NCBI RefSeq assembly: GCF_009363055.1
Contig: NZ_CP045292.1
Span: 1,922,001 to 1,986,000, forward strand
Length of the DNA: 64,000 nucleotides
Reading direction: 5' to 3'
DNA from: Flavobacterium haoranii
GTDB lineage: Bacteria > Bacteroidota > Bacteroidia > Flavobacteriales > Flavobacteriaceae
The position numbers and the translations under genes are program-made. Below the pieces are notes generated by a model. The model was not told where the DNA came from, did no database searches, and saw only the letters and a list, made by a program, of their open reading frames with translations. Shown here one piece after another: positions 27,080-51,508 of the stretch. The first letter of the stretch is position 1; each line of letters opens with the position of its first letter.

Positions 27080-27145
27080 TTCGTCCACAAACTTTTGCAG
27101 TTCGTCCCAAAGTAAATTTCTGTTTCATTTTAAAAGATATTTTTG
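27080..27145 (+). promoter_or_regulatory. Predicted LytTR operator plus promoter of the T9SS LamG protein
   Basis: TTCGTCC at 27080-27086 and again at 27101-27107 are direct repeats 21 bp apart (two helical turns). The -7 box TATTTTTG is at 27138-27145, so the first half-site begins 58 bp before the -7 TA. Spacing is identical at the two promoters of the second LytTR locus. Confidence 0.7.
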
Positions 27146-27170
27146 TTTCATAACTATAAAACTTCATTTT

Positions 27171-30100
27171 ATGAAACACAAGTACCTTTTATTAATTCTA
27201 TTACTCTCAGGTTTGAAGTCTTTTTCTCAGACAGATTCGTTTTTGACTTCAACATGTATAGGAACAACTACCAATCCTCAAAACAGATTTTACCAACCTC
27301 AAGTTGCAGACTTTGATGGTGATACGGATAAAGACATTATTGTACTTGATGAGTCTGGCGTGTATCGATTGTTTACAAATGATGGCACAAACAATTTTAC
27401 TCAAACTACAATTTTATCAGGATTAACTTGGAGTTCTTTAATCTCCAAAGATTTGGACAATGATGGTGATATCGATATTGTAAGTTCTGCAGGTAGAATT
27501 TTCATCAACAACGGATCTGCTGTCTTTACTGAATTACCAGGCACTTTTTTTACAGCTACAGGCTCTATTGGTGCATTTAGAGTTGCAGATTTTAACGGAG
27601 ATACCAAACAAGATATTATATGGTTAAATGCAACTTCTAATTCTACTACGGTTAATCAAATTTGGTTTAACAATGGAACTACAGGTAATGCAAGTTTTGT
27701 TCTAGGAACTGAAATTCAAAACCTAAATGGGTATACAAATTTAGGGTCTGTAGCAGGTGATATTGACAACGACGGAGATATTGACTTAGTTTTTTGTCAA
27801 CAAGGTGGGTGGAACGGAAGAGTCTTTAAGAACAATGGAAGTGGTGTATTTACAAATACTCAAAATTTACCTACTTATACAGGAGAAGGCTTTTTAGCTG
27901 ATTGGGATAATGATGGTGATATAAATTTCTTAGCTTATGATTACTATAACAATTGGGGCTTAAGATTATGGAAAAATGATGGTACAGGAACTTTTGGCCC
28001 TGTAAGTACAAATTCTTTAATAACAATGCCTAGTGTAGGAGCGGTTGATAAAATAATTGATTTAAATGGAGATACTTGGTTAGATGTAGTTTTAAGAAAT
28101 GGTACCGGTACAAGATATTTTTTAAATTCAGGTTGTCAATTAACGTTAAGTAATCAAGTCTTATCAAATTCTTGGAACGGTGTCGCGATTAGCGATTTTA
28201 ATAATGACAATAAACCTGATCTTTTCAATGCAGCAAGAGATGGGCAGTCATGTATTAATATTAATGATTTAAATGTTCAATCATACGTTGCTATCACAGC
28301 ACCTGTGGTATCAACAACTCAAGTTAATTATTTTGTTGGTCAATCGGCATCTCCGCTTGTTGCAACAGGTAATAATATTTTATGGTATACAACTTCTACT
28401 GGCGGAACTGGTTCTACAACAGCTCCAACTCCTTCTACTGCTGCGGCAGGATCTACTTCATATTGGGTTGTTTCAACTAATGCTAATGGTTGTGAAAGTG
28501 AAAGAATAGAAGTTGTTGTAACAGTTAGTTTAGCAGCAACACATTTAAATTTTGACGGTTCAAATGATGCTGTAACTGTAACAGGAGTTAATTTTCCTCT
28601 TGGAAATACTTCTAGAACAATTGAGGCTTGGATTAAAACTACTCAAAATAATGGTGGCGGTGCAATTATGACTTATGGAAATCTTACTACAAACAATAGA
28701 TTTGCTTTATATCAAACAGGAGGAAAATTGAATTTTGTTGCTGAAAACAACGACTATAATACAAATGTGACAATTAATGATGGTAATTGGCATCATATTG
28801 CTGCTACACATGATGGAACTTCCTTAAAAGTATATTTAGATGGTGTACAAGTAGGGACTTCACAAGCAAAGACATTTAACACGACTGGAAATCAATTTAG
28901 TATTGGATACAGAGGAGTAGCATCGGAGTATTTTAATGGAAGTGTTGATGAAATAAGAGTTTGGAATCTAGCAAGAACTGCAGAACAAATTTCAGGTTCA
29001 ATGAATTGTGAGTTAAACGGATCAGAAAATGGTTTGGTTGCGTACTATCAATTCAATCAAGGTATAGATCAAGCTGATAATTCAGCAATTACCACTTTAA
29101 ATGCTACCACTGGACCTAACGGAACTTTAACTAATTTTGCTTTGAATGGTTCGACATCAAATTGGTTAGCGGGCTCTCCTGTTACAACAGGTTCAGTTGT
29201 GCCTGGAAATGCATCCGCTACTTCTCCAATTGTTTACAATCAAGGAGAAACAGCAACAGCTTTATCTGCAACTACTGGAACAAACGGAACTGGATTAATG
29301 TGGTATACAACTGCAACTGGCGGAACTGGATCTACAACTGCTCCAACTCCTTCTACTGCTGCGGCAGGATCTACTTCATATTGGGTTGCTTCAACTAATG
29401 CTAATGGTTGTGAAAGTGAAAGAGTAGAAATTGTAGTTACAGTTAATGCGAATGCTACTCATTTAAATTTTGATGGTGTAAATGATGGTGTTAACTTAGG
29501 TAATTCATTAACTACTGCTTTAAATGGTGCAAACTTTGTTACTGCTGAAGCTTGGATTTACATTCCAAACACAACAGGAATAAAAACTATTATCGGTAAT
29601 CACGTTACTACAACACAATTTAATTTTAGAATTAATAATGATTACTTAGAAACTTTCCTAGGATTTGGATCTTATGCTTTACAATCTCCTGCAGGTTCAA
29701 TTGTCGCTAATACATGGCAACATGTAGCAATGGTTTATAATGACACTACTTTAAAATTATATATTAATGGTGTCGAAGTAGCTTCTAGAGCAATTCCAGC
29801 TGCTTATGCTTTACAAAGTTCAACTCAACCTTATATGGTTGGATATTCAGGTTTTGGTGGAGAATTCTTTAATGGATCTATAGATGAAGTTAGAGTATGG
29901 AATACTGCATTATCAGAAACCGATATTCAAGTAACTAAAGATTGTGAATTACAAGCTACTCAAAATGGTATTTTAGCTTATTATAAATTTAATCAAGGAT
30001 TTGACAATGCTGACAATGCTCCTGTCACAACATTAACTGATGAATTAGGTAGCTACAATGGTACATTAAACAACTTTTCTTTAACTGGAACTACTTCTAA

Positions 30101-30404
30101 CTGGGCAGCAGGCTCTCCAGTAACAACCGGAAACACTTGTACTACTTTAAGTAATTCAGGTTTTGAAACAATTTCTAATTTTAAAGTATTTCCAAATCCA
30201 TCTAATGGATTATATAACATTTCAACAACTGAATTAACTTCTATCCAAATTTATGACGTAGTTGGAAAACTTATTATGAATAATGAAGTTAATGCTGGAA
30301 CAAGTACAATTAACATTCATAATTTCCCTGCTGGAGTTTATATTTTACGATATAGTGGCAAAGAAAACAATACTAACGGAACAATTAAATTGATTAAGAA
30401 TTAA
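27171..30404 (+). CDS. Large T9SS surface protein with VCBS/FG-GAP, Ig-like and LamG domains
   Basis: 1077-residue secreted protein. Order: signal peptide (MKHKYLLLILLLSGLKSFSQ); about 350 residues of Asp-rich VCBS/FG-GAP repeats that would bind Ca2+ and form a beta-propeller (DFDGDTDKDIIV, DLDNDGDIDIVSS, DIDNDGDIDLVF); an Ig_7-like domain; a LamG/concanavalin-like domain (RTIEAWIKTTQNNGGG ... GSVDEIRVWNLART); a second Ig_7-like and a second LamG; and a T9SS type A CTD (FKVFPNPSNGLYNIST, VGKLIMNNEV, PAGVYILRYSGKE). The two Ig-like segments are near-identical copies. Likely an adhesin or glycan-binding surface protein. It lies behind a predicted LytTR operator. Confidence 0.9.
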   Translation: MKHKYLLLILLLSGLKSFSQTDSFLTSTCIGTTTNPQNRFYQPQVADFDGDTDKDIIVLDESGVYRLFTNDGTNNFTQTTILSGLTWSSLISKDLDNDGDIDIVSSAGRIFINNGSAVFTELPGTFFTATGSIGAFRVADFNGDTKQDIIWLNATSNSTTVNQIWFNNGTTGNASFVLGTEIQNLNGYTNLGSVAGDIDNDGDIDLVFCQQGGWNGRVFKNNGSGVFTNTQNLPTYTGEGFLADWDNDGDINFLAYDYYNNWGLRLWKNDGTGTFGPVSTNSLITMPSVGAVDKIIDLNGDTWLDVVLRNGTGTRYFLNSGCQLTLSNQVLSNSWNGVAISDFNNDNKPDLFNAARDGQSCININDLNVQSYVAITAPVVSTTQVNYFVGQSASPLVATGNNILWYTTSTGGTGSTTAPTPSTAAAGSTSYWVVSTNANGCESERIEVVVTVSLAATHLNFDGSNDAVTVTGVNFPLGNTSRTIEAWIKTTQNNGGGAIMTYGNLTTNNRFALYQTGGKLNFVAENNDYNTNVTINDGNWHHIAATHDGTSLKVYLDGVQVGTSQAKTFNTTGNQFSIGYRGVASEYFNGSVDEIRVWNLARTAEQISGSMNCELNGSENGLVAYYQFNQGIDQADNSAITTLNATTGPNGTLTNFALNGSTSNWLAGSPVTTGSVVPGNASATSPIVYNQGETATALSATTGTNGTGLMWYTTATGGTGSTTAPTPSTAAAGSTSYWVASTNANGCESERVEIVVTVNANATHLNFDGVNDGVNLGNSLTTALNGANFVTAEAWIYIPNTTGIKTIIGNHVTTTQFNFRINNDYLETFLGFGSYALQSPAGSIVANTWQHVAMVYNDTTLKLYINGVEVASRAIPAAYALQSSTQPYMVGYSGFGGEFFNGSIDEVRVWNTALSETDIQVTKDCELQATQNGILAYYKFNQGFDNADNAPVTTLTDELGSYNGTLNNFSLTGTTSNWAAGSPVTTGNTCTTLSNSGFETISNFKVFPNPSNGLYNISTTELTSIQIYDVVGKLIMNNEVNAGTSTINIHNFPAGVYILRYSGKENNTNGTIKLIKN
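28383..28527 (+). repeat. Direct repeat copy 1 (Ig-like module)
   Basis: 145-bp segment encoding WYTT-TGGTGSTTAPTPSTA and onward to the Ig end; repeated almost unchanged 918 bp downstream. Confidence 0.9.
29301..29445 (+). repeat. Direct repeat copy 2 (Ig-like module)
   Basis: Second copy of the 28383-28527 segment. Differences are only a few single bases, suggesting a recent duplication or gene conversion. Confidence 0.9.
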
Positions 30405-30496
30405 TGAAGTTCCTCTTTAAATATAAACTCGAATTAATTTTATTAATATTGTATATTATATTAGTATTACTAGGAGTTTATATTTACAATTTATAA
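30404..30496 (+). CDS. Candidate 30-residue single-span membrane microprotein
   Basis: ATG at 30404 overlaps the TAA of the T9SS gene (TAATG), giving MKFLFKYKLE, then a hydrophobic run LILLILYIILVLLGVYIY and a stop at 30494-30496. The charge pattern (basic start, one membrane helix) is that of real small membrane proteins and the coupled start supports translation. A terminator follows at 30501-30531. No family is recognised; existence needs expression evidence. Confidence 0.4.
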   Translation: MKFLFKYKLELILLILYIILVLLGVYIYNL

Positions 30497-30500
30497 AAAC

Positions 30501-30531
30501 AAAAAGGCTATCAAAATTGATAGCCTTTTTT
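30501..30531. terminator. Bidirectional terminator
   Basis: AAAAAGGCTATCA / TTGATAGCCTTTTT hairpin between the T9SS gene and tag. Confidence 0.9.
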
Positions 30532-30551
30532 CTTAAATTTTATTAAAATTC

Positions 30552-31112
30552 TTATTGTCTTGTCCAACAATCTTCAACATGATCGTTGACCATTCCTGTA
30601 GCTTGCATGTGCGCATAAACTACTGTTGAACCTACAAACTTAAAGCCTCGCTTTTTCAAATCTTTACTTAACTTATCTGAAATTTCTGTTGTTGCAGGAA
30701 CATCTGATAATTTTTTTGGTTGATTATCTATTGGTTTTCCACCTACAAATTCCCAAATGTACTTTGAAAAACTTCCAAGCTCTTCTTGAATTTTTATAAA
30801 AGCTTGCGCATTTGTAACGGCTGCTCTTATTTTTAATTTATTTCTAATAATTCCTGCATCTTCACAAAGTGCAACAATTTTATCTTCTGAAAAATTAGCT
30901 ACTTTTTGTACATCGAAACCTTCAAAAGCTTTTCGAAAATTGTCTCTTTTGGCTAAAACTGTGTACCAACTTAAACCTGCTTGAAAAGTTTCTAATATTA
31001 AAAATTCAAAAATGGTAGCATCATCATAAACAGGTTTTCCCCATTCGTTATCATGATAATCTCGGTACAAATCATCTTTTTCGCACCAAGCACAGCGATT
31101 TTTTGTTTGCAT
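30552..31112 (-). CDS. tag: DNA-3-methyladenine glycosylase I
   Basis: 186-residue Tag enzyme, which removes 3-methyladenine from alkylated DNA. Characteristic segments: RCAWCEKDDLYRDYHDNEWG, FLILETFQAGLSWYTVL, RNKLKIRAAVTNAQAF and the zinc-site-bearing C-terminal GSTVVYAHMQATGMVNDH. Length is typical. It begins 6 bp after the stop of the giant TraB-like gene on the same strand. Confidence 0.95.
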   Translation of the reverse strand: MQTKNRCAWCEKDDLYRDYHDNEWGKPVYDDATIFEFLILETFQAGLSWYTVLAKRDNFRKAFEGFDVQKVANFSEDKIVALCEDAGIIRNKLKIRAAVTNAQAFIKIQEELGSFSKYIWEFVGGKPIDNQPKKLSDVPATTEISDKLSKDLKKRGFKFVGSTVVYAHMQATGMVNDHVEDCWTRQ

Positions 31113-31118
31113 AGTTCA

Positions 31119-34100
31119 TTAATAATCAGAAAAAGTGTCTAAAAATTCACTTCCGCTGTTTTCTATAGTTTTTCTAAAATTAGTTCTTGGTCTGTCTTCA
31201 AAGAGACTTTCATTTATAATACGCTCGTATATTTCTTGTAATTTACTATCGTCTTTTATAGATTCTTTCCCAAGATATTCAAATGCATTAATGTTCAATT
31301 TATCGTCATTCATTACAAAAGCTAGTGAAATTAAATAATTTTCATAAAGCTTTGGTTCTTTCTCTGTTATTTTATAAAAATAGTACATAGCTTTTTTATT
31401 GTTGTACTCTTCTACTTTCTTTTCAAGAAACACAATGCTGTCGTTTTTCTTTTTCTCATAAAAGTTTTCTAAGGCTAATGCTGCTACTTCATCATTCGAT
31501 TTATGAAACGTTTTATTCTCTAATAACATAAACAAAAATGCCAATTTAGGATTTGCCAAATATTTTGCTTTATCAGTTTCCGAAAGTTTGTTATTTACAC
31601 TTTCTAATCGCATTAATTCGATGTTGATTTCTGGAATATCTATCTTGTTTAAATTACCATAAAATTCCGAAACTTTAGATTGGTCACTATTATTATACAA
31701 CAACGTTAAATAAGGAATCATTTCACCAGACGGATCGTTATAATCGTAACTATCATAATCATCCTCGTCGTCATCTTCTTTTGCGTTTTGCTTTTCCTTC
31801 CAACTTTTTAATCTTTTGTACTGAAGTTTAGCATTCGTAAAAATCATTTTTTGAAATGGTTTTAACTTTTTAGCTGCTTTTGGATATTCATCTACAACAG
31901 CTGCGCTAAATTCTAAAATAGGTTCGTTATATTCTGGAATGCTATAAAACTGAAATATTTTTGGCAACAACACTTTACTGTTTTCTACATCTTGCTCAAA
32001 CTTATAAAACAGCGAAGTTATTTCGTATTCATTGTTAGAAATTGGTAAATCAAACTCCATTAGCTCCAATATTTTCTCGTAAGAAGATTTTGTTTTTAAC
32101 GTAGCCAATGATTTTAATATATTTATTTTAGTTTCATTTGTACTCGACTCTCTTTTGTAATAATCTTCTAAGAATTTTTCAATTCTTACATCATTTTTAC
32201 TAACTAATAATTCTAAAAGTTGTTCTTGAGCCGAACTTTCACTTGGTTTAAATTCAAAATCATTTAAAAACTTAATTACTTTAGTAACATATTGCTCTTT
32301 AATTGACAAATTGCGCAACGAATTCATAGCCGAATATCGAATCGTATCGCTTTCGCTATTTGCATCTTCTAAAAATACATTCCATTTATCTGAAAATATA
32401 GAAAATTGCTGCGGAGCATTTAATTGAATAGAAGCAAAAACTTCATCTACCATTTGATCGCTATTTGGGTTCGATTTATCAACTAAAGAAGTTAGCATTA
32501 CATATTCGTCTTCTTTTAGCAATAACTTTGCTTTAATCGCTTGATCTGAGTTTTTGCGACCGACTAAAAAGTTTAATGTTGTTCTTTTGGTTTGTTCATC
32601 GTTCTTATAATTTTCATCTATTATATAATACAAACTTTTGTTTTCTTTATAATTGTAAAGCTCTTCGTACCATTTTGATGGATGAAATCCTTTTTTACTT
32701 TTTAATCCGCCTAAAATTGAATTTAAGCTATAATCGTAATCATAATTATTCTCTGCTAATTCTTCAATTGGATTAAACGAGTTTAAAAAATATCTTCTAA
32801 TATTTGATCGAATAGAATCAATATTTTCTCGGAACTCATATTTGTTATATTGAAAAAATCCTAAATGAACATCGGTTCCGCTTTCGCTTTTAAAAGTGTA
32901 GGTTTTTGTTTTTTCGGTAAAAATATTTTTAGTATCTACTTCATTTTTCTCTAAATCGTAAAAAAGTGCTTTATTACTTTCAAACGGAATTAAAATAGAG
33001 AAATTCACATCTTTATTGGTATACAATCTTAATTCTTCGCTATAATTAAACTTTTGTGCCAAAAAGCTATTAAAAAAACGTTCTTTTTTATCTGTCGAAG
33101 CATTTACACAACCCAACAAATAATATTTTGGTCCGATAACCTTTGTTTTTAAATAGATTGTATTTCCGTTTTCTAGTGTACTTTGACTTTCAACTTCTAC
33201 TCCATTTTTAATAAAATTTGGCGTAACATTATATTGCAACAAAAACTCTTTTGAATTTGTTGTAACTCAAAATTTGTTTCTTCTAAATATGAAACATCCG
33301 ATTCAGTATTTTCTAAAATGAAATAATAACTCTTATCGCTAACATCATAAGCTTCAATTTCAACATTTCTATAATCGTCATTAGAATGCACTACATGATA
33401 TTCTGGCAATTCTACTGTGAATTTTCCATTTGAAGGAGCATAACTCGACCAATTTGTACTTAGCTCTTTTAATTTTATAGAATTAAAAAATAAGTTTTCA
33501 TACAAGTCAACATAATTTTTGGGCCCAACTAAAGAAATTGAGATTACTTCTAATGGTGTGATGTAAAAATTATAATGTTGGTTATTATTTGTCTTGGTAA
33601 TATTTGAAACACTTAATAATTTGTAGTTATCTTTTTCAATAAGTTCCTTTTTTAACGTGGTTCCAGGAATGTTCTCGAAAAGTAAACTATCTAAGGTTTT
33701 CTCAGTAAATAAATTATGTTTCTTTAAGAAATTGTGTATCGGTTTGCGATTAATCTTTAAAGCAGCTCCACTGGCAAAATCGGGTGAAACTATAATGTTT
33801 CTATCTTCAAAACTCATTTCGTTGACAGGAAACGAAATAATGCCGTCTTTGGTCTGCGAAACTTTTAAAGTTGGTTTTGGAAAATTGTTTTCTAGCGATT
33901 TTTTTAATTCTTTCCCTTTATCAGTTAATGCAGTATTAATAGGTTTTACAGTGTAACCTTTACGTTTTAGAATTTCAAGCATTCCATCTTTACCTGCTAA
34001 ATGCGCTGCGCCAACAGCTGCAAAAATGGTTTGTTTATTTTTCATGACTTTATCCATAGAATTTGCCATGTCTTTATTTCTACTTACAATAATTGCATCG

Positions 34101-34768
34101 TGTGCTTTCTCAGAAATAGTTAATTTGTAAATAGAATCGAGCAACTGAATGTTTTTTTCACGATACAAGTCATTTAAAGCCTCATTAAACGATTTATTCT
34201 TGAGCAACTTGTAAAGTATTACTTTATTCTCTTCTTTTGGCTTAGCTTCCTCCTCATTTATTTTAAATATTGGAATGTAAGAATCGATAACATCTTCGAG
34301 ACCTACAATTCTTTTCCCTAATTTTTTTCCTACTTGGAAAATAAACATATCAAGAACCGTGTCTTCTTGATAATCGGAATTTAAACTGTTATTTCCCGAC
34401 AGCATATTGTTGAAATACGTATTATCGGTATTAAACAAATCGTTTAAATCAGTTTTAGCAATTGGTTTTAAATAGAATTTCGCATAAAGTTTTTGGTAAT
34501 CGTTTGAAAAGTTTTTGTAGAACATTTCATAAAGCTCTGTCCACGTTTGCGGATCACTCTCATTTGCGACAACCTCAACTCCGGTTAAAGCTTCAAAAAA
34601 ATCGTCAGATAAATGGTAAGAGACCTTATCGTTTACATGCATTGTACCGTAGATGTACGATTTTTTAGAATTATTTCCTTTAGAGATTTCCCAAAGCAAA
34701 CTATTTTCGGTTTGAGCCGATGCAATTATTGAAAATAAAGAAGCTAATAAAAGTGATAAATATTTCAA
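31119..34768 (-). CDS. TraB/GumN family protein with long C-terminal extension, frameshifted
   Basis: About 1216 residues after repair. Signal peptide (MKYLSLLLASLFSIIASAQ), then a TraB/GumN domain (LLWEISKGNNSKKSYIYGTM, ANESDPQTW, IFAAVGAAHLAGKDGML), which in relatives is a Tiki-like protease or heme/pheromone-associated fold. The frame breaks in the four-T run 33249-33252; one base joins ELQQIQKEF to LLQYNVTPNFIKNG. About 700 further residues follow with repeated helix pairs (RYSAMNSLRNLSI, KINILKSLATLKTK) resembling HEAT-type repeats and an acidic segment (KEDDDEDDYDSYDY). The extension is far longer than a usual 290-residue GumN protein. Confidence 0.8.
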
Positions 34769-34889
34769 AACCTTGACATTAAATTATTGAATAATGAAAA
34801 TAATAGGAAATGGAAATATAAAAAATAAAAATGATTTGATAATGAAGAATCAATAATCTTTAGAGGTTGAGAAACAAAACTCCATAAAA

Positions 34890-35001
34890 ACAAAAAAGCC
34901 CTCCCGTGAAAACGGAACAGCTTTTCATTGGTCTAACTACTAAACCTTTCCTGATTTCTCAGGAATAAACAACACAACTATTTTAAATGTTTTAAGAGGG
35001 C
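34890..35001 (-). ncRNA. Unidentified structured RNA with U-tract terminator
   Basis: Read on the minus strand, GCCCTC (35001-34996) pairs with GAGGGC (34903-34898) to close a ~104-nt domain holding three hairpins: TTCCTGA-GAAA-TCAGGAA (34965-34948, GNRA loop), GGTTTA-GTAGT-TAGACC (34946-34930) and CCGT-TTTC-ACGG (34915-34904). A run of six T (34897-34892) follows, as in an intrinsic terminator. One stem pair is a G-U wobble only on the minus strand, which supports that orientation. It lies just downstream of tRNA-Asp and its own terminator hairpin. I do not recognise the family; no open frame is present. Confidence 0.6.
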
Positions 35002-35028
35002 AAAAAAGCCTTTCTCTTCGAAAGGCTT
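35002..35028 (-). terminator. Terminator after tRNA-Asp
   Basis: Minus-strand AAGCCTTTCGAAGAGAAAGG and CTTTTTTG form a hairpin followed by T6, 10 bp past the tRNA 3' end. Confidence 0.75.
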
Positions 35029-35038
35029 CCTCTTTTAC

Positions 35039-35115
35039 TGGCGGTCTGGACGGGACTCGAACCCGCGACCCCATGCGTGACAGGCATGTATTCTAACCAA
35101 CTGAACTACCAAACC
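35039..35115 (-). tRNA. tRNA-Asp (anticodon GTC), CCA encoded
   Basis: Minus-strand cloverleaf: acceptor GGTTTGG pairs with CCAGACC (one G-U), D-arm AGTTCAGTTGGTTAGAA, anticodon arm ATGCCTGTCACGCAT with GTC, T-arm CGCGGGTTCGAGTCCCG, discriminator G and an encoded CCA at 35041-35039. Promoter box lies at 35134-35141. Confidence 0.97.
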
Positions 35116-35133
35116 AGTGCTTAATTGCGAGTG

Positions 35134-35141
35134 CAAATATA
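35134..35141 (-). promoter_or_regulatory. -7 box TATATTTG for tRNA-Asp
   Basis: Minus-strand TATATTTGC, with TTTGG 19 bp upstream serving as the -33 element; 18 bp before the tRNA 5' end. Confidence 0.75.
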
Positions 35142-35201
35142 CAACGCTTTTTCAATCTTCCAAATATTTTTACAAAAAAAATTAAACTTTTTTTTACTAT
35201 T

Positions 35202-36128: not shown

Positions 36129-36229
36129 ATCGTAAAGATAATTAAAAACCAATTCTTTGTTTAAGTTAAAACCATAAAAAAAGGACAAACTTTCGTTTAT
36201 CCTTTTCATTTCTTTTTCAAAAAATCATA

Positions 36230-42738: not shown

Positions 42739-42751
42739 TAAATAGCGATTG

Positions 42752-43279: not shown

Positions 43280-43347
43280 TCGACAGTTGCAGTCAAAATT
43301 TACAGATTACAGTTTTTTTAATTGTTTAAATTCAATCCTTTTTCATT

Positions 43348-44052
43348 TTGTTCAAATTCAAGCAATTTCACGTTAATCAAGATCGTTGTGCTATGAAAAT
43401 TGGCACTGATGGTGTTTTGCTTGGTGCTTGGACTCCGTTAATTAACAATCCTTGTAATGTTTTAGATATTGGTGCTGGAACTGGAATTTTGTCTTTAATG
43501 TTAGCCCAAAGAAGTAACGCTGAACAAATCGATGCTATTGAAATTAACGAAGATGCTTACGAACAATGCGTTGAGAATTTTGAAGCTTCGCCTTGGGGCG
43601 ATAAATTATTTTGTTTTCATGCGGGTTTGGATGAATTTGTAGATGAACCTGAAGATGAATATGATTTAATTATTTCCAATCCGCCTTTTTATACTGATGA
43701 TTATAAATCTGATAATACTTCGAGAGATTTAGCACGTTTTGAGAACGCTTTGCCTTTTGAAGAATTGATTGAAGCGGCTGCTTTACTACTTTCGGATAAC
43801 GGAATTTTCTCGGTGATTATTCCTTATAAAGAAGAAGAGCGATTTGTTGCTATGTGTAAAGAATTGGATTTATTCCCTTTAAAAATTACTCGTGTAAAAG
43901 GCACGACAACATCGGAAATTAAAAGAAGTTTATTAGCTTTTTGCCGAATGGAGCAAACTCCTTTAATTGATGAGTTAGTTATTGAAATTTCTAGACATAA
44001 TTATACTCCTGAATACATCGAATTAACGAAAGAGTTCTATTTGAAGATGTAA
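43348..44052 (+). CDS. trmN6: tRNA1(Val) (adenine(37)-N6)-methyltransferase
   Basis: 234-residue SAM-dependent methyltransferase of the TrmN6/YfiC family. It would methylate N6 of A37 in tRNA-Val. Motif I is VLDIGAGTGILSL; the base-flipping NPPF motif is in DLIISNPPFY; FHVNQDRCAMKIGTDGVLLG is the family opening. Translation starts at the TTG at 43348, since that opening begins directly after it. Downstream of rimM with a 68-bp gap. Confidence 0.88.
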   Translation: MFKFKQFHVNQDRCAMKIGTDGVLLGAWTPLINNPCNVLDIGAGTGILSLMLAQRSNAEQIDAIEINEDAYEQCVENFEASPWGDKLFCFHAGLDEFVDEPEDEYDLIISNPPFYTDDYKSDNTSRDLARFENALPFEELIEAAALLLSDNGIFSVIIPYKEEERFVAMCKELDLFPLKITRVKGTTTSEIKRSLLAFCRMEQTPLIDELVIEISRHNYTPEYIELTKEFYLKM

Positions 44053-44135
44053 CGCTAGCCCAGATTGAGCAATTTGCTGGAGCTCTTTTTAAAAAAAGCG
44101 ACTTGCGAAAGCTGGATAAAGCTTCAAAAATAAAA
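44053..44135. repeat. Intergenic palindromic repeat element
   Basis: The 199-bp gap holds CGCTAGCCCAGATTGAGCAA, GGAGCTCTTTTTAAAAAAAG and CGACTTGCGAAAGCTGGATA, arranged as a partly self-complementary unit. It differs in sequence from the CTTCGACAAGCTC family and is a second repeat type. A -7 box for the next gene lies beyond it at 44177-44184. Confidence 0.45.
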
Positions 44136-44176
44136 AAATATAACATTTGTTGGGTAATTTGTTAAAAATGTTTCTG

Positions 44177-44184
44177 TAATTTTG
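44177..44184 (+). promoter_or_regulatory. -7 box TAATTTTG for the acyl-CoA dehydrogenase
   Basis: TAATTTTGC matches TAnnTTTG, about 68 bp upstream of the start at 44252. Confidence 0.55.
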
Positions 44185-44251
44185 CAAACGATTTCGTAGT
44201 TAGCTTAATCTAATTACTTATCACTTTTTACTAATCACTTTTTAAAAAAAT

Positions 44252-45430
44252 ATGAGACCAGACTTATTTCAATCTCCAGATTATTATTTATTAGACGAAT
44301 TATTATCTGACGAACATAAAATGGTGCGTGATGCTGCACGTGCTTGGGTAAAAAAAGAAGTTTCTCCAATTATTGAAGAATACGCGCAAAGAGCAGAATT
44401 TCCAAAACAAATTGTAAAAGGTTTAGGAGAAATTGGTGGATTTGGTCCGTATATTCCAGTGGAATATGGTGGTGCTGGATTAGACCAAATTTCTTATGGA
44501 TTAATCATGCAAGAAATTGAAAGAGGAGATTCGGGTGTACGTTCGACATCTTCGGTTCAGTCTTCATTGGTAATGTATCCAATTTGGAAATACGGAAACG
44601 AAGAGCAAAGAATGAAATATTTACCAAAACTTGCTACTGGTGAATTCATGGGATGTTTTGGTTTAACAGAGCCAGATTACGGTTCAAATCCAGGTGGAAT
44701 GGTAACTAATTTTAAAGATATGGGTGATCATTATCTTTTAAATGGTGCTAAAATGTGGATTTCGAATGCGCCTTTTGCTGATATTGCAGTAGTTTGGGCT
44801 AAAAACGAAGAAGGAAGAATTCACGGATTAATCGTAGAAAGAGGAATGGAAGGATTCTCAACTCCAGAAACACACAATAAATGGTCGTTAAGAGCATCTG
44901 CAACTGGAGAGTTAATTTTTGACAACGTTAAAGTTCCTAAAGAAAACTTATTACCGGGAAAATCTGGATTAGGAGCACCACTAGGATGTTTAGATTCTGC
45001 TCGTTATGGTATTGCTTGGGGAGCTATTGGAGCAGCAATGGATTGTTATGATACTGCTTTACGCTATTCAAAAGAAAGAATTCAGTTTGACAAGCCAATT
45101 GGAGCAACACAATTACAACAAAAGAAATTAGCTGAAATGATTACCGAAATCACAAAAGCACAATTATTAACTTGGAGATTGGGTGTTTTAAGAAACGAAG
45201 GAAAAGCTACTTCTGCTCAAATTTCAATGGCTAAGAGAAACAACGTAGATATGGCTATTCATATTGCTCGTGAAGCTCGTCAAATGTTAGGCGGAATGGG
45301 TATTACAGGAGAATATTCTATCATGAGACACATGATGAATTTAGAATCTGTAATTACTTATGAAGGAACTCACGACATTCACTTGTTAATTACTGGTATG
45401 GACGTAACAGGTTTCCCTGCATTCAAATAA
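44252..45430 (+). CDS. gcdH: Acyl-CoA dehydrogenase (glutaryl-CoA dehydrogenase-like)
   Basis: 392-residue FAD enzyme of the acyl-CoA dehydrogenase family. The catalytic-base region reads SVITYEGTHDIHLLI, where the Glu of YEGT is the base of glutaryl-CoA dehydrogenases. Other marks: GCFGLTEPDYGSNPGGM, NGAKMWISNAPFADIAVVWA and RYSKERIQFDKPIGATQLQQ. Expected to oxidise and decarboxylate glutaryl-CoA in lysine/tryptophan degradation, with electrons to ETF; substrate by family resemblance. Monocistronic, with a terminator at 45455-45485. Confidence 0.88.
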   Translation: MRPDLFQSPDYYLLDELLSDEHKMVRDAARAWVKKEVSPIIEEYAQRAEFPKQIVKGLGEIGGFGPYIPVEYGGAGLDQISYGLIMQEIERGDSGVRSTSSVQSSLVMYPIWKYGNEEQRMKYLPKLATGEFMGCFGLTEPDYGSNPGGMVTNFKDMGDHYLLNGAKMWISNAPFADIAVVWAKNEEGRIHGLIVERGMEGFSTPETHNKWSLRASATGELIFDNVKVPKENLLPGKSGLGAPLGCLDSARYGIAWGAIGAAMDCYDTALRYSKERIQFDKPIGATQLQQKKLAEMITEITKAQLLTWRLGVLRNEGKATSAQISMAKRNNVDMAIHIAREARQMLGGMGITGEYSIMRHMMNLESVITYEGTHDIHLLITGMDVTGFPAFK

Positions 45431-45454
45431 TTGAACAATAGATAAAATTGATAC

Positions 45455-45485
45455 AAAATGCTTCTCTTTTTAGGGAAGCATTTTT
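45455..45485 (+). terminator. Terminator of the acyl-CoA dehydrogenase gene
   Basis: AAAATGCTTC-TCTTTTTAGG-GAAGCATTTTT hairpin with T tail. Confidence 0.85.
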
Positions 45486-45554
45486 ACATTTGTAATGTAT
45501 AGATTCAATCCCAAAAGAAGTTAGAAATTCGTATATAGAAATAAAAATTGCCCA

Positions 45555-46337
45555 ATGAATATTCAAACCATAAACCAATCGATTAAAAATCAGAAAGAAC
45601 AATTATTAAATCATTCGTTATACAATAAAGTAAAAACGATAGACGATTTGCATTGTTTCTTAGAAAACCACATTTATGCGGTTTGGGATTTTATGTCGTT
45701 ACTAAAAGCCTTGCAGAATAAATTAACTTGCACTACTACTCCGTGGTTACCTATTGGAAATCCAGAAATTCGTTATTTAATTAATGAAATTGTTGTAGCC
45801 GAAGAAACCGATTTAACATTGGACGGAACACGTCAAAGTCATTTTGAAATGTATTTGGATGCGATGGTACAATGTGGTGCTTCGACAAGTCAAATAAATG
45901 CTTTTTTGAAAAATGTAGAAGAAACAAAAAACATTTTTGTATCAATAAAACAAAGTGATTTACATACTAATGTTAAAGAATTTTTAGATTTTACTTTTAG
46001 AGTAATTGAACAAGGAAAACCACATGAAATTGCAGCTGCTTTTACTTTTGGTAGAGAAGATTTGATTCCGAATATGTTTACCGAAATCTTGAAAAACTTT
46101 CAGCAAAATTTCCCTGAAACCGATTTATCAAAACTAATTTATTATTTCGAAAGACATATTGAATTAGATGCCGACGAGCACGGTCCAATGGCAATGCAAA
46201 TGATAACTGAACTTTGTGGTGATTCAGAACAAAAATGGAATGAAGTTCAAGAAGTTTCGGTTTTAGCTTTAGAAAAAAGAATCGGACTTTGGAATGCTAT
46301 TGAAGAACAAGTAGAACACAAACATGAATTAGTATAA
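45555..46337 (+). CDS. DUF3050 domain-containing protein
   Basis: 260-residue protein of the DUF3050 family, which resembles the heme-oxygenase/TenA helical fold. Conserved segments are FLENHIYAVWDFMSLLKALQ, PWLPIGNPEIRYLINEIVVA and YYFERHIELDADEHGPMAM, the His/Glu residues being candidates for metal binding. No reaction is known. It is followed by a terminator at 46341-46370. Confidence 0.85.
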   Translation: MNIQTINQSIKNQKEQLLNHSLYNKVKTIDDLHCFLENHIYAVWDFMSLLKALQNKLTCTTTPWLPIGNPEIRYLINEIVVAEETDLTLDGTRQSHFEMYLDAMVQCGASTSQINAFLKNVEETKNIFVSIKQSDLHTNVKEFLDFTFRVIEQGKPHEIAAAFTFGREDLIPNMFTEILKNFQQNFPETDLSKLIYYFERHIELDADEHGPMAMQMITELCGDSEQKWNEVQEVSVLALEKRIGLWNAIEEQVEHKHELV

Positions 46338-46340
46338 AAT

Positions 46341-46370
46341 GAAAAGCGAGAAGAAATTCTCGCTTTTTTA
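46341..46370 (+). terminator. Terminator of the DUF3050 gene
   Basis: GAAAAGCGAGAA / TTCTCGCTTTTTT hairpin immediately after the stop. Confidence 0.85.
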
Positions 46371-46371
46371 T

Positions 46372-46437
46372 TTCACCTCAATTTTTTTAACGTTTACCTC
46401 AATTTTTTTTCATAAAAACAAACCTCACGTACTTTGG
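46372..46437 (+). promoter_or_regulatory. Predicted LytTR operator plus promoter of the beta-helix operon
   Basis: TTCACCTCAATTTTTTT (46372) and TTTACCTCAATTTTTTT (46393) are direct repeats 21 bp apart. A -7-like TACTTTGG begins at 46430, 58 bp from the first half-site. Same geometry as 27080-27145 and 51443-51508. Confidence 0.7.
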
Positions 46438-46456
46438 GGCATTAAATGTTTATATT

Positions 46457-46939
46457 ATGAAGACAAAACATCTACTCATACAAGTATTGTTACTACTTAC
46501 TTTTGGATTGGCATCAGCGCAAACCGGAGTAACCGTAACCTACTACGACGCTACGACACAGCAGTTCAATGTCACTACCGCTGGAAAATTATACTTTTCC
46601 TCTGATAATTTGAATATTTTATCTGATACTGGTTCAACCGTAACCACTATTCCGGTAACGATTATTCAAAAAGTTACGTTTTCCGAAGCTTTTTTAAGCA
46701 CATCTACTTTTGGAACTAATTCGACTAATTTGGTTATGTATCCAAATCCAAGTTCCGACTTTATCAAATTTTCATCATCGCAAACCGATGAATTAAAAGT
46801 AAGTATTTACAACTTAAGTGGGCAATTGGTACTCAACGGAACATATTCGGTTAGTCAGGAAATTACAGTTTCAAACTTTGCTTCCGGATTGTATTTGGTT
46901 CAAGTTAATGGTGTAACATTTAAATTGAGTAAAAAATGA
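46457..46939 (+). CDS. Small T9SS type A sorting domain protein
   Basis: 160-residue secreted protein. Signal peptide (KHLLIQVLLLLTFGLASAQ), a ~60-residue segment (YYDATTQQFNVTTAGKLYFS ... IIQKVTFSE) and then a T9SS CTD (LVMYPNPSSDFIKFSSS, LSGQLVLNGTY, FASGLYLVQVNGVTFKL). Little besides the sorting domain remains, so it may be a surface tag or partner. Its stop overlaps the next start (ATGA at 46936-46939), coupling translation to the beta-helix gene. Confidence 0.85.
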   Translation: MKTKHLLIQVLLLLTFGLASAQTGVTVTYYDATTQQFNVTTAGKLYFSSDNLNILSDTGSTVTTIPVTIIQKVTFSEAFLSTSTFGTNSTNLVMYPNPSSDFIKFSSSQTDELKVSIYNLSGQLVLNGTYSVSQEITVSNFASGLYLVQVNGVTFKLSKK

Positions 46940-49647
46940 AAAAGATAGTTTTATTTATAGCAACAGTTGTATTCGGAATAAACAGCTATGCACAGCAAAA
47001 AGTTTTGGTTCACCATTCGGGAGAAACCATTTATGCTAAAGAAATTTCTGCGGTTGACAGCATCAAATTAAATGACACCTATGCCAAATTCAAATTAACC
47101 GATGTTACCAATACATTGAATTTCCAAAAAACATTGGTTGACAGTTTAACCTTCACTTCGTCAACAGTAGATTTGGATAAAATATATGTTATTTACAATG
47201 GCACCGATGATGCAACCATTATTAATCCGTATGCTGACCAAGGTGTTACTTTAACAGCTTCAGGCGGAACTGTAACTGGAACAGCAACTTCGGGTATTGC
47301 CAATTTGGAATACAACATTTTAGGAACAACTACTAACGGAAGTTTAACATTGGCAACAACTGATAATGTTATTTTTGTAATGAACAACGCTTCGGTAACC
47401 AATCCTTCGGGAGCACCAATTGTAGTTACCGGCGGAATGACAACCAATTTTTATTTGACTGACGGAACTACCAACAGTTTATCCGATGGAACATCAAGCA
47501 CCAAAAATGGAACAATCGTAACTGCCGGACCAATTGTTTTTGACGGAACAGGAACTTTAACCGTTGCCGGATTGAAAAAACACGGTATTTATACAACTTC
47601 AACAATTACTATTGATGAAGGCGATATTGCAGTTACTTCAGCTGTATCAGACGGTTTACATAGCGAAGGTTTTGCAATGAATGGCGGTTCGCTTAATGTT
47701 ACTTCAACTGCTGATGGAATAGATGCTGGAGATGGCGTAGTTACCGTTACCGATGGTACTATTACGATTACTTCTACTTCTGCAGATGTTAAGGCATTTA
47801 AAACAGGTAACAACACCATTACAATTAATGGCGGAACCATTACATTAACTGTTTCGGGTAACCAATCAAAAGGAATTAGTGCAAAAAGCGACATTATGTT
47901 TAATGGCGGAACAATTGCTGTTACACTTTCAGGAGCAACCGTTTTAACGGCTTCAGGAAGTGGTTATGATCCATCTTATCCTACGGCAGTAAAAACCGAT
48001 ACAGACATTATAATCAATGGTGGAACTTTTACCATAACAGCAACCTCAACAGCAACGGGAGCAAAAGGTTTTTCTGCGAATGGTGAAATTATAGTAAACA
48101 GTGGAAACATCACAACGAATACTGCTGGCGCTGGTGCCGATTATGTAAATATTGACGGTGTTGCCGATTCGTATTCTACTTCTTCTTTCTCTGCAGACAC
48201 CAATATTACTGTTACAGGTGGAACCATAAATAGTACGAATAGCGGTTCAAACGGAAAAGGATTATCGGCAGATGTTGATGTACTTGTTAGTGGCGGAACC
48301 TTGACAATTACCAATTCTGGAGCTTCTGGAAAAGGTATCAAAGCAGATGGAAATGTAACCTTTTCAGGTGGAAATACAACCATTACAGTTTCTGGAGCAA
48401 CTGTTTTAACAGCTTCAGGCAGTGGTTATGATACTTCGTATCCTACAGGTGTAAAAGCAACAGGTGATATCATTGTAAATAGCGGAACAATTACACTTAC
48501 AGGAACTTCTGCTGCAACGGGCGGAAAAGGTTTGTCGGCTGATGGCAACATTACCATAAACGATGGTACAATTTCAGCTACATTTGCCGGGGCAGGTGCA
48601 GTTTATACCAATACATTGGGAACAACTGATTCGTATTCTTCTGCTTGTATTACTGCCGATGGAAATTTAACCATCAATGCTGGTTCGGTAACAACTTCAA
48701 GTTCAGGTAATGGCGGAAAAGGTTTAAAAGCCGATGGTGCTATGAACATTGGAACATCAATTACAAGTCCAACTTTAAATATTACAACTACTGGTTCACG
48801 ATTTTTAGTTTCAGGAACGGATTACAGCCATCCTAAAACTATTGTTGCCGATGGTGCTATTACCATTGCAAACGGAACGCTTACTGTAAATTCAACAGAT
48901 GACGGTATTCACTCCGATACTTCGGTAACTATTTCTGGCGGAAATCATAATGTAAATGCTATTTCAACTATTAGTGGAATGGGCGAAGGTGTAGAAGCTC
49001 CAATAATTAACTTTACTGGCGGTGTTACCAATATTACCGCTTCAAATGATGGAATTAATGCTACTTATGGAACAGTTGCCGGTGGAACAGAAAGCAACGA
49101 CGGTAGCCAATTAAACATTTCAGGCGGAATTGTTATTGTTGCAGGAACAGATGCTATTGACAGTAACGGAAACATTACCATAACTGGTGGAACAACTGTG
49201 GTTTGCGGACCAACTAACCAACCAGAAGAAGGAATCGATTTTAACGGAACTTTCAATATGAATGGCGGTACACTTATAAGCGCTGGTTCAAATGCGAATA
49301 TGACAAAAAACTTTAGCTCTACTTCAACTCAAAGAACGATGTATTTAAAATCTAATTCTCAACTAGCAGCCACTTCTATGATTCATATAAGAACAACTGC
49401 TGGTGTTGAATTAGCAACTTTTAAACCTAAAAATGGTGTTTATTACTTCCATTTTTCAAGCCCAAATATCGCTGGAAATGTTAGTCATCAAGTTTATTTT
49501 GGAGGTTCCTATACAGGAGGAAGTTTTGTAGGCAATTCATCTGGATGGGGTCTTTATACGGGTGGGACCTATTCTACAACTGGTGCGACTCTAAAAAAGA
49601 CGTTCACTACATCGAATACAAGCACATTAAATACACAAACTTTTTAA
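46936..49647 (+). CDS. Carbohydrate-binding beta-helix protein (Cthe_2159-like)
   Basis: 903-residue secreted protein. Signal peptide (KKIVLFIATVVFGINSYAQ), a ~75-residue segment with VDSIKLND and VDSLTFTS motifs shared with other flavobacterial surface proteins, then a right-handed beta-helix of many short Gly/Thr-rich turns (INGGTITLTVSGNQSKGISA, GLSADGNITINDGTISATF, DGIHSDTSVTISGG). This matches the Cthe_2159 carbohydrate-binding fold, whose namesake binds cellulose and polygalacturonate. A ~154-residue block is duplicated (DNA 47932 and 48394, both starting SGATVLTASGSGYD). It lacks a T9SS CTD although its coupled partner has one. Confidence 0.8.
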   Translation: MKKIVLFIATVVFGINSYAQQKVLVHHSGETIYAKEISAVDSIKLNDTYAKFKLTDVTNTLNFQKTLVDSLTFTSSTVDLDKIYVIYNGTDDATIINPYADQGVTLTASGGTVTGTATSGIANLEYNILGTTTNGSLTLATTDNVIFVMNNASVTNPSGAPIVVTGGMTTNFYLTDGTTNSLSDGTSSTKNGTIVTAGPIVFDGTGTLTVAGLKKHGIYTTSTITIDEGDIAVTSAVSDGLHSEGFAMNGGSLNVTSTADGIDAGDGVVTVTDGTITITSTSADVKAFKTGNNTITINGGTITLTVSGNQSKGISAKSDIMFNGGTIAVTLSGATVLTASGSGYDPSYPTAVKTDTDIIINGGTFTITATSTATGAKGFSANGEIIVNSGNITTNTAGAGADYVNIDGVADSYSTSSFSADTNITVTGGTINSTNSGSNGKGLSADVDVLVSGGTLTITNSGASGKGIKADGNVTFSGGNTTITVSGATVLTASGSGYDTSYPTGVKATGDIIVNSGTITLTGTSAATGGKGLSADGNITINDGTISATFAGAGAVYTNTLGTTDSYSSACITADGNLTINAGSVTTSSSGNGGKGLKADGAMNIGTSITSPTLNITTTGSRFLVSGTDYSHPKTIVADGAITIANGTLTVNSTDDGIHSDTSVTISGGNHNVNAISTISGMGEGVEAPIINFTGGVTNITASNDGINATYGTVAGGTESNDGSQLNISGGIVIVAGTDAIDSNGNITITGGTTVVCGPTNQPEEGIDFNGTFNMNGGTLISAGSNANMTKNFSSTSTQRTMYLKSNSQLAATSMIHIRTTAGVELATFKPKNGVYYFHFSSPNIAGNVSHQVYFGGSYTGGSFVGNSSGWGLYTGGTYSTTGATLKKTFTTSNTSTLNTQTF

Positions 49648-49704
49648 TAATTAATTTATATTTGAATCTTTGGCAAAGTATTGTTTTTGCCAAAGATTTA
49701 AAAA

Positions 49705-50734
49705 ATGAAGGCATCTACCCGAAATATCATTCTTCATATCATAGGAAGCATCTCGTTTTTGAGTTTTCCTATTTTATCTTCACCTGATTTTAATACTGGT
49801 CAAAATTTATTTGCAATAAATCCGTTTCTTCAAAATTTTTCAAGAACTATTTTATTATTACTTTTTTTTATTTAAATTTTTACGTTTTACTTCCAAAACT
49901 ATATTTTAAAAAAAGAAAGTTTATTTTTTTATAACATTAATTGTTTGTTTTACGGTTATTTACAGTATTTCAAATTTTGTTTTTCCGTATGAATTTAGAC
50001 CAAATATTGAAATTGATGAAAATTTCCCTTTAAAACCTAATCCAAGTTTTCATTTACCTCCATTTTTTGAAAGCGGAATATTTCAATTTCTCATCGTTAT
50101 TGCTTTATCATATCTTTTAAAAATTAACAAAAGATTTGAAGAAGTTAAAAACGAAAAACAAATTGCTGAAATCTCATATCTAAAAGCTCAAATTAATCCT
50201 CATTTTCTATTTAATACACTCAACAGTATATATGCCTTAACCATTATAAAATCAGATGAAGCTCCTAATGCTGTTTTAAAATTATCGAGTATGATGCGTT
50301 ATGTTGTTACAGAGAGTTCACAAGATTTTGTTCCACTCTCAAAAGAAATTGAATATATAAACGACTATATAACGTTACAAAAATTGAGAATGAATAATGA
50401 TGTCAACTTTTCATTTAATTTCGTAGGAAATGAAACAGGAAAAGTTATAGCACCGTTAATCTTGATTCCATTTATTGAAAATGCCTTTAAATATGGCTTA
50501 AACCCTGATGAAGAATCCGAAATTAAAATTGAACTAGTTGTACTTGATTTTAATTTAACTTTGGTTGTAAAAAACAAGATGGTTGTTGATGAAATTTCAA
50601 AAGATTTAAAAACCGAAACTGGAATAGAAAACACCAAAAAGCATTTAGAATATTTATATCCAAAAAAATATTTATTAGAAATTACAGAAATTGAAAATGA
50701 TTATATTGTAAGCTTAAATATAAATTTGGATTAA
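49705..50734 (+). CDS. LytS-type sensor histidine kinase, two frameshifts
   Basis: About 343 residues after repair. ATG 49705 opens a membrane region with helices such as IILHIIGSISFLSFPIL and TILLLLFFYLNFYVLLP. Breaks occur in the eight-T run 49862-49869 and the seven-T run 49924-49930, each needing one T. Downstream come the His_kinase domain (ISYLKAQINPHFLFNTLNSI, the LytS/YehU phospho-His motif) and an ATPase region (LILIPFIENAFKYGL, TGIENTKKHLEYLYP). It lies 57 bp after the beta-helix gene and 17 bp before the regulator, so is part of the same operon. Confidence 0.85.
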
Positions 50735-50751
50735 TAAAAAAACTCTTACTG

Positions 50752-51429
50752 ATGACTGCAATTGCAATAGATGACGAACCATTAGCACTTCAAATAATTT
50801 CGCATTATTGTGATCAAATAGAATGTATTACTTTAGAAAAGACTTTTACTCAACAAACTGAAGCATTAAAATATTTAAAAAAATACCCCGTTGATTTAAT
50901 TTTTTTAGATATTCAAATGCCAAATAAAAATGGAGTTGAATTTTACAAAATGCTAGATAATAGCCCAATGGTTATTTTTACAACTGCTCACAGTCAATAT
51001 GCAGTTGAAGGATTTAATGTAAATGCTACTGATTATCTATTGAAACCATTTTCTACAGAACGATTCATGACAGCAGTTCAAAAAGCTCGCAATGAATATG
51101 AATTTCGTAAAAATCAGTCCACACAATACCATTTAATGATTCGCGCCGATTATAAATTACATCGTATTGAATTTGATGAAATTTTATTTATTGAAGGTCT
51201 AGATGACTATGTGCAAATTCATTTAACAAATAAACCCAAAATTGTAGCTCGACTCTCTATGAAAGGAATTTTAGAAAAATTACCTGAAAATGATTTTATA
51301 AGAGTTCACCGTTCCTTTATTATACCAATTAAAAAAGTAAAAGCAATAGTTAATAAAAATATTCAAATTAATGATTTTTTAATCCCAATTGGCGAGACTT
51401 ATAAAGATGCAATTTTAAAATATTTTTAA
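50752..51429 (+). CDS. LytTR-type response regulator
   Basis: 225-residue regulator. Receiver: AIDDEPLALQI, phospho-acceptor Asp in LIFLDIQMPNKNGVE, TTAHSQYAVEGF and conserved Lys in YLLKPFS. LytTR domain: FIEGLDDYVQIHL, RVHRSFIIPIKKVK and IPIGETYKDAIL. Phosphorylated by the adjacent LytS-like kinase by inference. Two matching 21-bp-spaced repeat pairs flank the operon at 46372 and 51443, the likely binding sites. Confidence 0.93.
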   Translation: MTAIAIDDEPLALQIISHYCDQIECITLEKTFTQQTEALKYLKKYPVDLIFLDIQMPNKNGVEFYKMLDNSPMVIFTTAHSQYAVEGFNVNATDYLLKPFSTERFMTAVQKARNEYEFRKNQSTQYHLMIRADYKLHRIEFDEILFIEGLDDYVQIHLTNKPKIVARLSMKGILEKLPENDFIRVHRSFIIPIKKVKAIVNKNIQINDFLIPIGETYKDAILKYF

Positions 51430-51442
51430 GAATTAACATTCT

Positions 51443-51508
51443 TTTACCCTAAAAATACTTGTGTTTACCTATTAAAATTTTTCAGGAGTTTATCATTACA
51501 TAAATTTA
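51443..51508 (+). promoter_or_regulatory. Predicted LytTR operator plus promoter of the Spy-like gene
   Basis: TTTACC at 51443 and 51464 are 21 bp apart, with A/T-rich flanks as in the beta-helix operator. TAAATTTA at 51501-51508 is a -7-like box exactly 58 bp from the first half-site. Confidence 0.65.

What the first reader, a model, noticed from the sequence alone, without database searches (positions are those of the whole stretch)
27080..51508. Three promoters with LytTR-type direct repeats, all at the same distance from the -7 box
At 27080, 46372 and 51443 half-sites TTCGTCC, TTCACC/TTTACC and TTTACC are each repeated 21 bp downstream. In all three the first half-site begins exactly 58 bp before the T of a TAnnTTTG-like box (27138, 46430, 51501). 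Each lies beside a LytTR regulator gene and before a surface or envelope gene (VCBS/LamG T9SS protein, beta-helix operon, Spy-like protein). LytTR proteins are known to bind direct repeats about two helical turns apart. Together this suggests two flavobacterial LytTR systems that activate adhesion or glycan-binding proteins from a fixed promoter geometry, with no -33 element needed.
Basis: partly seen in the sequence, partly recalled or inferred. Interest (0 to 1): 0.82.

Follow-up and report, generated by a model that had tools for sequence, protein, structure and literature searches.

The report
Fixed-geometry LytTR activator promoters in Flavobacterium
Three promoters in this Flavobacterium carry paired binding sites, very probably for neighbouring LytTR-type switch proteins, at a conserved distance from the promoter box, and the same layout recurs in relatives, often before genes for secreted surface proteins.

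Summary
All three coordinates check out: half-sites 21 bp apart, the first 58 bp before a -7-like box. A matrix built only from other genomes ranks the three sites 1, 2 and 3 of 127,870 window positions; none of 512 alternative geometries matches. After RR1, TAnnTTTG lies exactly 58 bp from the first half-site in 15 of 19 loci, the window's own included. Near RR2 relatives the element often lies before the kinase, after the regulator, or both. Two genomes carry the site-2 repeats before the same four-gene operon, with a weaker box at 59. No TTG is conserved at the -33 position. Of ten RR1-linked targets tested, 9 have LamG domains and 8 type IX tails.
Best reading: LytTR response regulators bind head-to-tail to TTYRYC..CAAA repeats and activate promoters that lack a -33 element, controlling secreted proteins and, for RR2, their own operon. 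Binding, activation and start sites are inferred. LytTR direct repeats at set distances upstream of promoters are known elsewhere, Bacteroides included, so this is a new variant of a known kind; 37 of 80 RR2-like loci have no hit.

The parts
25559..26425 (+). HK1, histidine kinase (HisKA_2)
   Evidence: Pfam PF07568 E 1.3e-15
26429..27079 (+). RR1, response regulator with LytTR DNA-binding domain
   Evidence: Response_reg 1.6e-16, LytTR 1.3e-14
27080..27111 (+). site 1: half-sites TTCGTCCACAAA (27080) and TTCGTCCCAAA (27101)
   Evidence: conserved in orthologs
27138..27145 (+). -7 box TATTTTTG, 58 bp from first half-site
27171..30404 (+). target 1: secreted FG-GAP/LamG protein with type IX sorting tail
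   Evidence: Laminin_G_3 5e-51, FG-GAP_3 7.4e-30, Por_Secre_tail 2.7e-11
46372..46403 (+). site 2: half-sites TTCACCTCAAT (46372) and TTTACCTCAAT (46393)
   Evidence: repeats before the same operon in L192 and L194
46430..46437 (+). -7-like box TACTTTGG, 58 bp from first half-site; resembles motif SM5 (TAnnTTGY) of F. psychrophilum except for its last base
   Evidence: PMC9723704 passages
46457..46939 (+). small secreted protein with type IX sorting tail
   Evidence: Por_Secre_tail 7.4e-14
46936..49647 (+). Cthe_2159-type carbohydrate-binding protein
   Evidence: PF14262 2.3e-55
49705..50734 (+). HK2, histidine kinase, reading frame broken in this assembly (C-terminal part 50291-50734 open)
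   Evidence: His_kinase 8.3e-8; three frames read apart; first ATG at 49705
50752..51429 (+). RR2, response regulator with LytTR domain
   Evidence: Response_reg 1.2e-21, LytTR 4.8e-15
51443..51474 (+). site 3: half-sites TTTACCCTAAA (51443) and TTTACCTATTA (51464)
   Evidence: counterparts after RR2 relatives
51501..51508 (+). weak -7-like box TAAATTTA, 58 bp from first half-site; L021, L023, L026 and L029 have TACTTTTA or TACCTTTA at that place
51536..51961 (+). target 3: small secreted Spy-like/DUF4890-like protein
   Evidence: weak PF16231 5.1e-4, below its cut-off

Best explanation
The repeats are binding sites for the LytTR response regulators encoded beside or behind them. A phosphorylated regulator dimer binds head-to-tail to two half-sites (about TTYRYC..CAAA) two helical turns apart (21 bp). 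The -7 box lies at -12 to -5 in F. psychrophilum (PMC9723704, passages), so the half-sites would start at about -70 and -49, which puts the promoter-proximal LytTR domain just upstream of where a -33 element would lie. There it would recruit RNA polymerase to promoters without a -33 TTG. RR1 switches on a type IX-secreted LamG protein; RR2 switches on its own operon (secreted protein, Cthe_2159, HK2, RR2) and the gene after it. Shown: repeats, geometry, conservation, gene neighbourhood, no conserved -33 TTG. Inferred: which protein binds, activation, phosphorylation, start sites, and that 46457-51429 is one transcript.
For: Window sites rank 1-3 with a matrix from other genomes; 0 of 512 geometries equal them. 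In 115 fetched loci (1.155 Mb) exact half-site pairs plus TAnnTTTG: 36 at distance 58, 17 at 79 (one more half-site upstream), at most 1 at every other distance from 40 to 100; spacings 19, 20, 22, 23 give none at 58. Matrix scan at 15 bits: 59 hits against a mean of 1.7 (max 16) for 161 other geometries in 80 RR2-type loci; 18 against 0.68 (max 9) in 29 RR1-type loci. Held-out loci (63 of L009-L088 plus L186-L205, rows at least 80% like a training row dropped, duplicates merged): 36 half-site pairs at spacing 21 against 4 to 13 at 16 other spacings; 35 full elements at 21/58 against a mean of 1.6 and a maximum of 10 (at 21/59) for 52 other geometries. RR1: 15 of 19 loci with TAnnTTTG at exactly 58, one at 59, one (L103) with three half-sites and the box 58 from the second. 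In L009-L040, 25 of 33 hits lie just before the kinase or just after the regulator. Between second half-site and box no position exceeds 0.47 bits. TTG occurs at any one position from box-16 to box-29 in at most 4 of 50 elements. Both regulators have LytTR domains.
Against: No binding or transcription data. All relatives were fetched because they carry LytTR relatives, so there is no matched set of loci without LytTR genes. 37 of 80 RR2-type loci and 11 of 29 RR1-type loci have no hit at 15 bits; 8 of 20 RR2 loci of the genus have none at 13 bits. Distance is not always 58: L186 57, L101 59, L192 and L194 59. Among half-site pairs chosen without regard to a box, the best box lies at 58 in 3 of 11 pairs of L186-L205 and at 58 or 79 in 14 of 27 of the other held-out loci; 4 and 10 of these have no fair box at all. 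Boxes at sites 2 and 3 are off consensus. The seven own-genome stretches around the other LytTR genes hold no hit of 15 bits. In L213 and L219 no ORF of 70 codons starts within 450 bp after the element. The matrix was trained on elements selected for 21/58.
Confidence: 0.8

Rival explanations
1. The LytTR proteins bind these sites but repress, or do both, rather than activate.
For: Position alone (about -70 to -39) does not prove activation; weak boxes at sites 2 and 3 could be regulated either way.
Against: No conserved -33 TTG and location wholly upstream of the core promoter fit activation; AgrA and HdrR, with repeats immediately upstream of their promoters, activate (PMC4227749, PMC6193735, passages).
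Confidence: 0.1
2. The repeats are bound by another regulator, and LytTR adjacency is incidental.
For: No binding data; every locus compared was chosen for a LytTR relative, so any element conserved in that synteny would look linked.
Against: Hits in L009-L040 crowd at the two ends of the kinase-regulator pair (25 of 33); the genes that follow differ between lineages while the element stays; direct repeats about 21 bp apart are what LytTR proteins bind elsewhere.
Confidence: 0.07
3. Chance repeats plus choice of a weak box by the first reader, at least at site 3.
For: Site 3 is weak (15.4 bits; box score 1.6), and a sequence-only model ranks it behind an unrelated place.
Against: Third of 127,870 positions and 0 of 512 control geometries reach it; L021, L023, L026 and L029 carry the same element after RR2 with TACTTTTA or TACCTTTA at 58.
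Confidence: 0.03

Closest known systems
Bacteroides LRS-like operons (PMC6193735, passages with Table 3 rows)
   Same: LytTR-family regulator, direct repeats (11 bp, 11 bp apart) upstream of a TATCTTTG promoter, autoregulation presumed by the authors
   Different: Spacing 22 not 21, repeats TCCGGTATTCA/ACCGGAAATCA, first repeat 67 bp before the box (my sum from the table row) not 58, a TGTA/TGTG element listed 19 bp before the box, regulator with transmembrane segments
AgrA of Staphylococcus aureus (PMC4227749, passages)
   Same: LytTR response regulator, dimer on direct repeats just upstream of its promoters, centre of the proximal repeats near -60
   Different: Promoters with -35 and -10 elements of suboptimal spacing instead of a lone -7 box; half-site differs (recalled)
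HdrR/BrsR LytTR regulatory systems of Streptococcus mutans (PMC6193735, passages)
   Same: Direct repeats with 12-bp spacer a few bp upstream of the promoter, positive autoregulation, gel shift shown there for HdrR
   Different: Regulator paired with an inhibitory membrane protein; -35 element present
E. coli BtsR and YpdB (recalled, from no call)
   Same: LytTR response regulators on direct repeats about 21 bp apart
   Different: Half-site sequence and promoter type

Membership tests
LytTR response regulator | Receiver domain plus C-terminal LytTR domain | tested here: met
   RR1 and RR2 over Pfam cut-offs for both domains
LytTR response regulator | Binds imperfect direct repeats about two turns apart | not testable with these tools
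   Repeats 21 bp apart found and conserved; binding itself not testable
LytTR response regulator | Partner histidine kinase encoded beside it | tested here: met
   HK1 HisKA_2 and HK2 His_kinase adjacent; HK2 frame broken here, kinase open in L009-L013, L016, L025 (340-361 aa)
Sigma-A promoter of Bacteroidota | -7 box TAnnTTTG | tested here: inconclusive
   Met exactly at site 1; one mismatch each at sites 2 and 3
Sigma-A promoter of Bacteroidota | -33 TTG/TTTG element (recalled) | tested here: not met
   At any one position from box-16 to box-29, TTG in at most 4 and TTTG in at most 3 of 50 elements; ordinary promoters were not scored for comparison
LRS (LytTR regulatory system) | LytTR regulator paired with an inhibitory membrane protein instead of a kinase | tested here: not met
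   Both systems have receiver domains and adjacent kinases

The most novel reading that the evidence does not exclude
A widespread class of Bacteroidota promoters in which a LytTR dimer at a rigid distance replaces the -33 element; half-site letters drift between regulator clades while the 21/58 geometry stays, so regulons of kinase-LytTR pairs could be predicted largely from geometry.
Probability: 0.45. Interest if true: 0.68.

Novelty: new variant of a known kind. Interest (0 to 1): 0.55.

Why it matters
LytTR regulators are numerous in these bacteria (8 PF04397 matches in this genome), yet my searches showed no published binding site for flavobacterial ones: LytTR with Flavobacterium and direct repeat, Bacteroidetes and binding site (19), Bacteroides and direct repeats (22), TAnnTTTG (23), Flavobacterium johnsoniae (32), type IX secretion (48), direct repeats with response regulator and transcription start (51). 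The library is open-licence papers only. Of the papers listed I opened passages of five; three others that hold LytTR with F. johnsoniae or type IX secretion (PMC7440613, PMC10057207, PMC11278836) I saw as listings only. A geometry that predicts sites would let regulons be read from sequence; it ties a kinase-LytTR pair to LamG proteins of the type IX system; and it bears on how Bacteroidota RNA polymerase starts at promoters without a -33 element.

Tried and rejected
A mixed sequence-only covariance model (R1) was weak: in the window it found site 1 clearly, site 3 marginally and site 2 only in part, so position-fixed matrices were used. Over the genome it gave 66 matches to E 10, from 150 scored of 10,492 candidates; seven lie at 1.156-1.181 Mb, but the fixed-geometry matrix has no hit of 15 bits there. 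The 13-bit threshold is loose: strong half-site pairs pass with a poor box, hence 9 (RR2) and 12 (RR1) hits at (21,57). Three rows (L029 minus, L038 minus, L047 minus) were dropped before training as likely chance or coding; the L047 one later looked like part of a divergent pair. One search counts as held out some RR1 loci (L206-L220) that come from the same genomes as training rows; one search repeats the test without them. Notebook errors: entry 1 says 16 of 19 RR1 loci at 58, one search shows 15; entry 3 gives TAGATTTG at 63 after another LytTR gene, the letters are TAGATTCG. Two papers were opened in passages without finding a LytTR site: PMC5395568 and PMC10197871. Chains of solved structures matched the receiver domains in the rows shown; I looked for a LytTR-DNA complex there and saw none among the 60 of 150 and 60 of 79 rows listed.

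Full report
Observation. The sequence confirms each coordinate: half-sites at 27080/27101, 46372/46393 and 51443/51464, spacing 21, and a -7-like box 58 bp after the first base of each first half-site (TATTTTTG, TACTTTGG, TAAATTTA). The window lies in a 2.87-Mb single-contig genome; the nearest named RR2 relatives are Flavobacterium.

Genes. Pfam: 25559-26425 histidine kinase (HisKA_2); 26429-27079 receiver plus LytTR (RR1); 27171-30404 FG-GAP, LamG and type IX sorting tail; 46457-46939 sorting tail; 46936-49647 Cthe_2159 carbohydrate-binding domain; 50291-50734 C-terminal part of a histidine kinase; 50752-51429 receiver plus LytTR (RR2); 51536-51961 a weak DUF4890 match.

Conservation at RR1. 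A search of 299 genomes of the genus (about 10 first-look candidates scored per genome) gave orthologs. In 15 of 19 loci (L089-L107, own included) TAnnTTTG lies exactly 58 bp from the first half-site after RR1; L101 has 59; L103 has three half-sites and its TATATTTG is 79 from the first, so 58 from the second; L106 and L107 show none. The common sequence is close to TTCGTCCACAAACTTTTGCAGTTCGTCCCAAA. Larger stretches were taken for 15 of the 16 genomes with E up to 6.8e-54 (G258 left out; own genome not counted): 14 of 15 show the element directly after RR1, and L214 has a second gene with its own copy. Of ten target proteins given to Pfam, 9 have LamG and 8 a type IX tail; L217 was given only in part, and L209 has an apolipoprotein N-acyltransferase-like protein instead. 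The first genes of L208, L214, L215 were not given; in L213 and L219 no ORF of 70 codons starts close by.

Conservation at RR2. In 80 loci of RR2 relatives (the best 80 of 209) the matrix at 15 bits finds 59 hits at spacing 21 and distance 58, against a mean of 1.7 and a maximum of 16 for 161 other geometries; 43 of 80 loci have a hit, 17 of these 43 being training loci. In L009-L040 25 of 33 hits lie just before the kinase or just after the regulator, and 8 elsewhere, not all checked for lying inside genes. Several loci carry one copy before the kinase and another after the regulator (L010, L015, L021, L023, L026, L029, L030; L188, L189, L191, L195), the same plan as window sites 2 and 3. Of the 20 best RR2 matches of the genus apart from the own genome, 12 have a hit at 13 bits and 8 have none. 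L192 and L194 carry the window's four-gene operon (sorting-tail protein, Cthe_2159, kinase, regulator) with the repeats at the same place and a TACTTCG box at 59. Ten proteins linked to RR2-type sites include M43 peptidases, dioxygenase-like proteins and an arylsulfotransferase with type IX tails, a small sorting-tail protein, a dioxygenase-like protein without tail, and Kelch, DUF3500 and PepSY-like proteins.

Geometry. Exact matching in 115 loci (1.155 Mb; own L006, L007, L089 left out) gives 36 at distance 58 and 17 at 79, and at most one at any other distance from 40 to 100; spacings 19, 20, 22, 23 give none at 58. These counts contain related sequences, RR1 and Flagellimonas/Muricauda above all; 43 sites, less three dropped, reduced to 30 at 80% identity. 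In loci outside the training set, with near copies of training rows removed, 36 half-site pairs stand at spacing 21 against 4 to 13 at 16 other spacings, and 35 full elements at 21/58 against a mean of 1.6 and a maximum of 10 for 52 other geometries. When pairs are chosen without regard to a box, the best box is at 58 in only 3 of 11 pairs of L186-L205 and at 58 or 79 in 14 of 27 of the other held-out loci. Between second half-site and box no position exceeds 0.47 bits; TTG is found in 18 of 700 position checks from box-16 to box-29.

Window significance. With the matrix from other genomes the three sites rank 1, 2, 3 of 127,870 positions, and 0 of 512 alternative geometries reach them.

Mechanism. 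In F. psychrophilum the -7 box lies at -12 to -5 (PMC9723704, passages), so the half-sites would start near -70 and -49, with a centre near -54, close to the AgrA position (centre of the proximal repeats near -60; PMC4227749, passages). I infer activation by a head-to-tail dimer that takes the place of the -33 contact. The box at site 2 resembles motif SM5 of the same paper, TAnnTTGY, except for its last base, so a promoter of another sigma class is possible there.

Known work. PMC6193735 (passages) describes LytTR direct repeats at set distances upstream of promoters, with two Bacteroides examples (spacing 22, 67 bp to the box by my sum). The kind is therefore known; the flavobacterial half-site, the 21/58 rule, the missing -33 and the link to type IX cargo are what I did not find in print with the searches named in Why it matters.

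Noticed in passing
window 49705-50734: HK2 is split over three reading frames at A/T-rich runs, while the kinase is open in L009-L013, L016 and L025; pseudogene or assembly error cannot be told apart.
   Followed up: partly
window 49657-49704: Between Cthe_2159 and HK2 lie a TATATTTG box (49657) and an inverted repeat CTTTGGCAAA (49668) / TTTGCCAAAG (49686), a possible internal promoter or attenuator.
   Followed up: no
L047, L057, L060, L061 near 4380-4450: Two elements back to back on opposite strands, as if one LytTR regulator served divergent genes in Flagellimonas/Allomuricauda.
   Followed up: no
L109, L112, L113, L114, L118 after the regulator: A different LytTR clade has TTCATCACAAA-type repeats 21-22 bp apart, sometimes three copies; the three pairs that the matrix found in L109-L118 have no fair -7 box 40-80 bp downstream.
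   Followed up: partly
L152 7590 (own genome, after the LytTR gene at 2229291): TTCATGTACAAA and TTCATGACAAA 21 bp apart; no box at 58, a TAGATTCG at 63.
   Followed up: no
own genome 1,156,319-1,181,022: Seven of 66 weak hits of model R1 fall in 25 kb around another LytTR gene; the fixed-geometry matrix has no hit of 15 bits there.
   Followed up: partly
L008 (own genome 38433-38693): An eighth LytTR match has an internal TAG.
   Followed up: no
window 1392-1488, 11967-12060, 57896-57989: Three Flavo-1 RNA elements of unknown function (Rfam RF01705).
   Followed up: no
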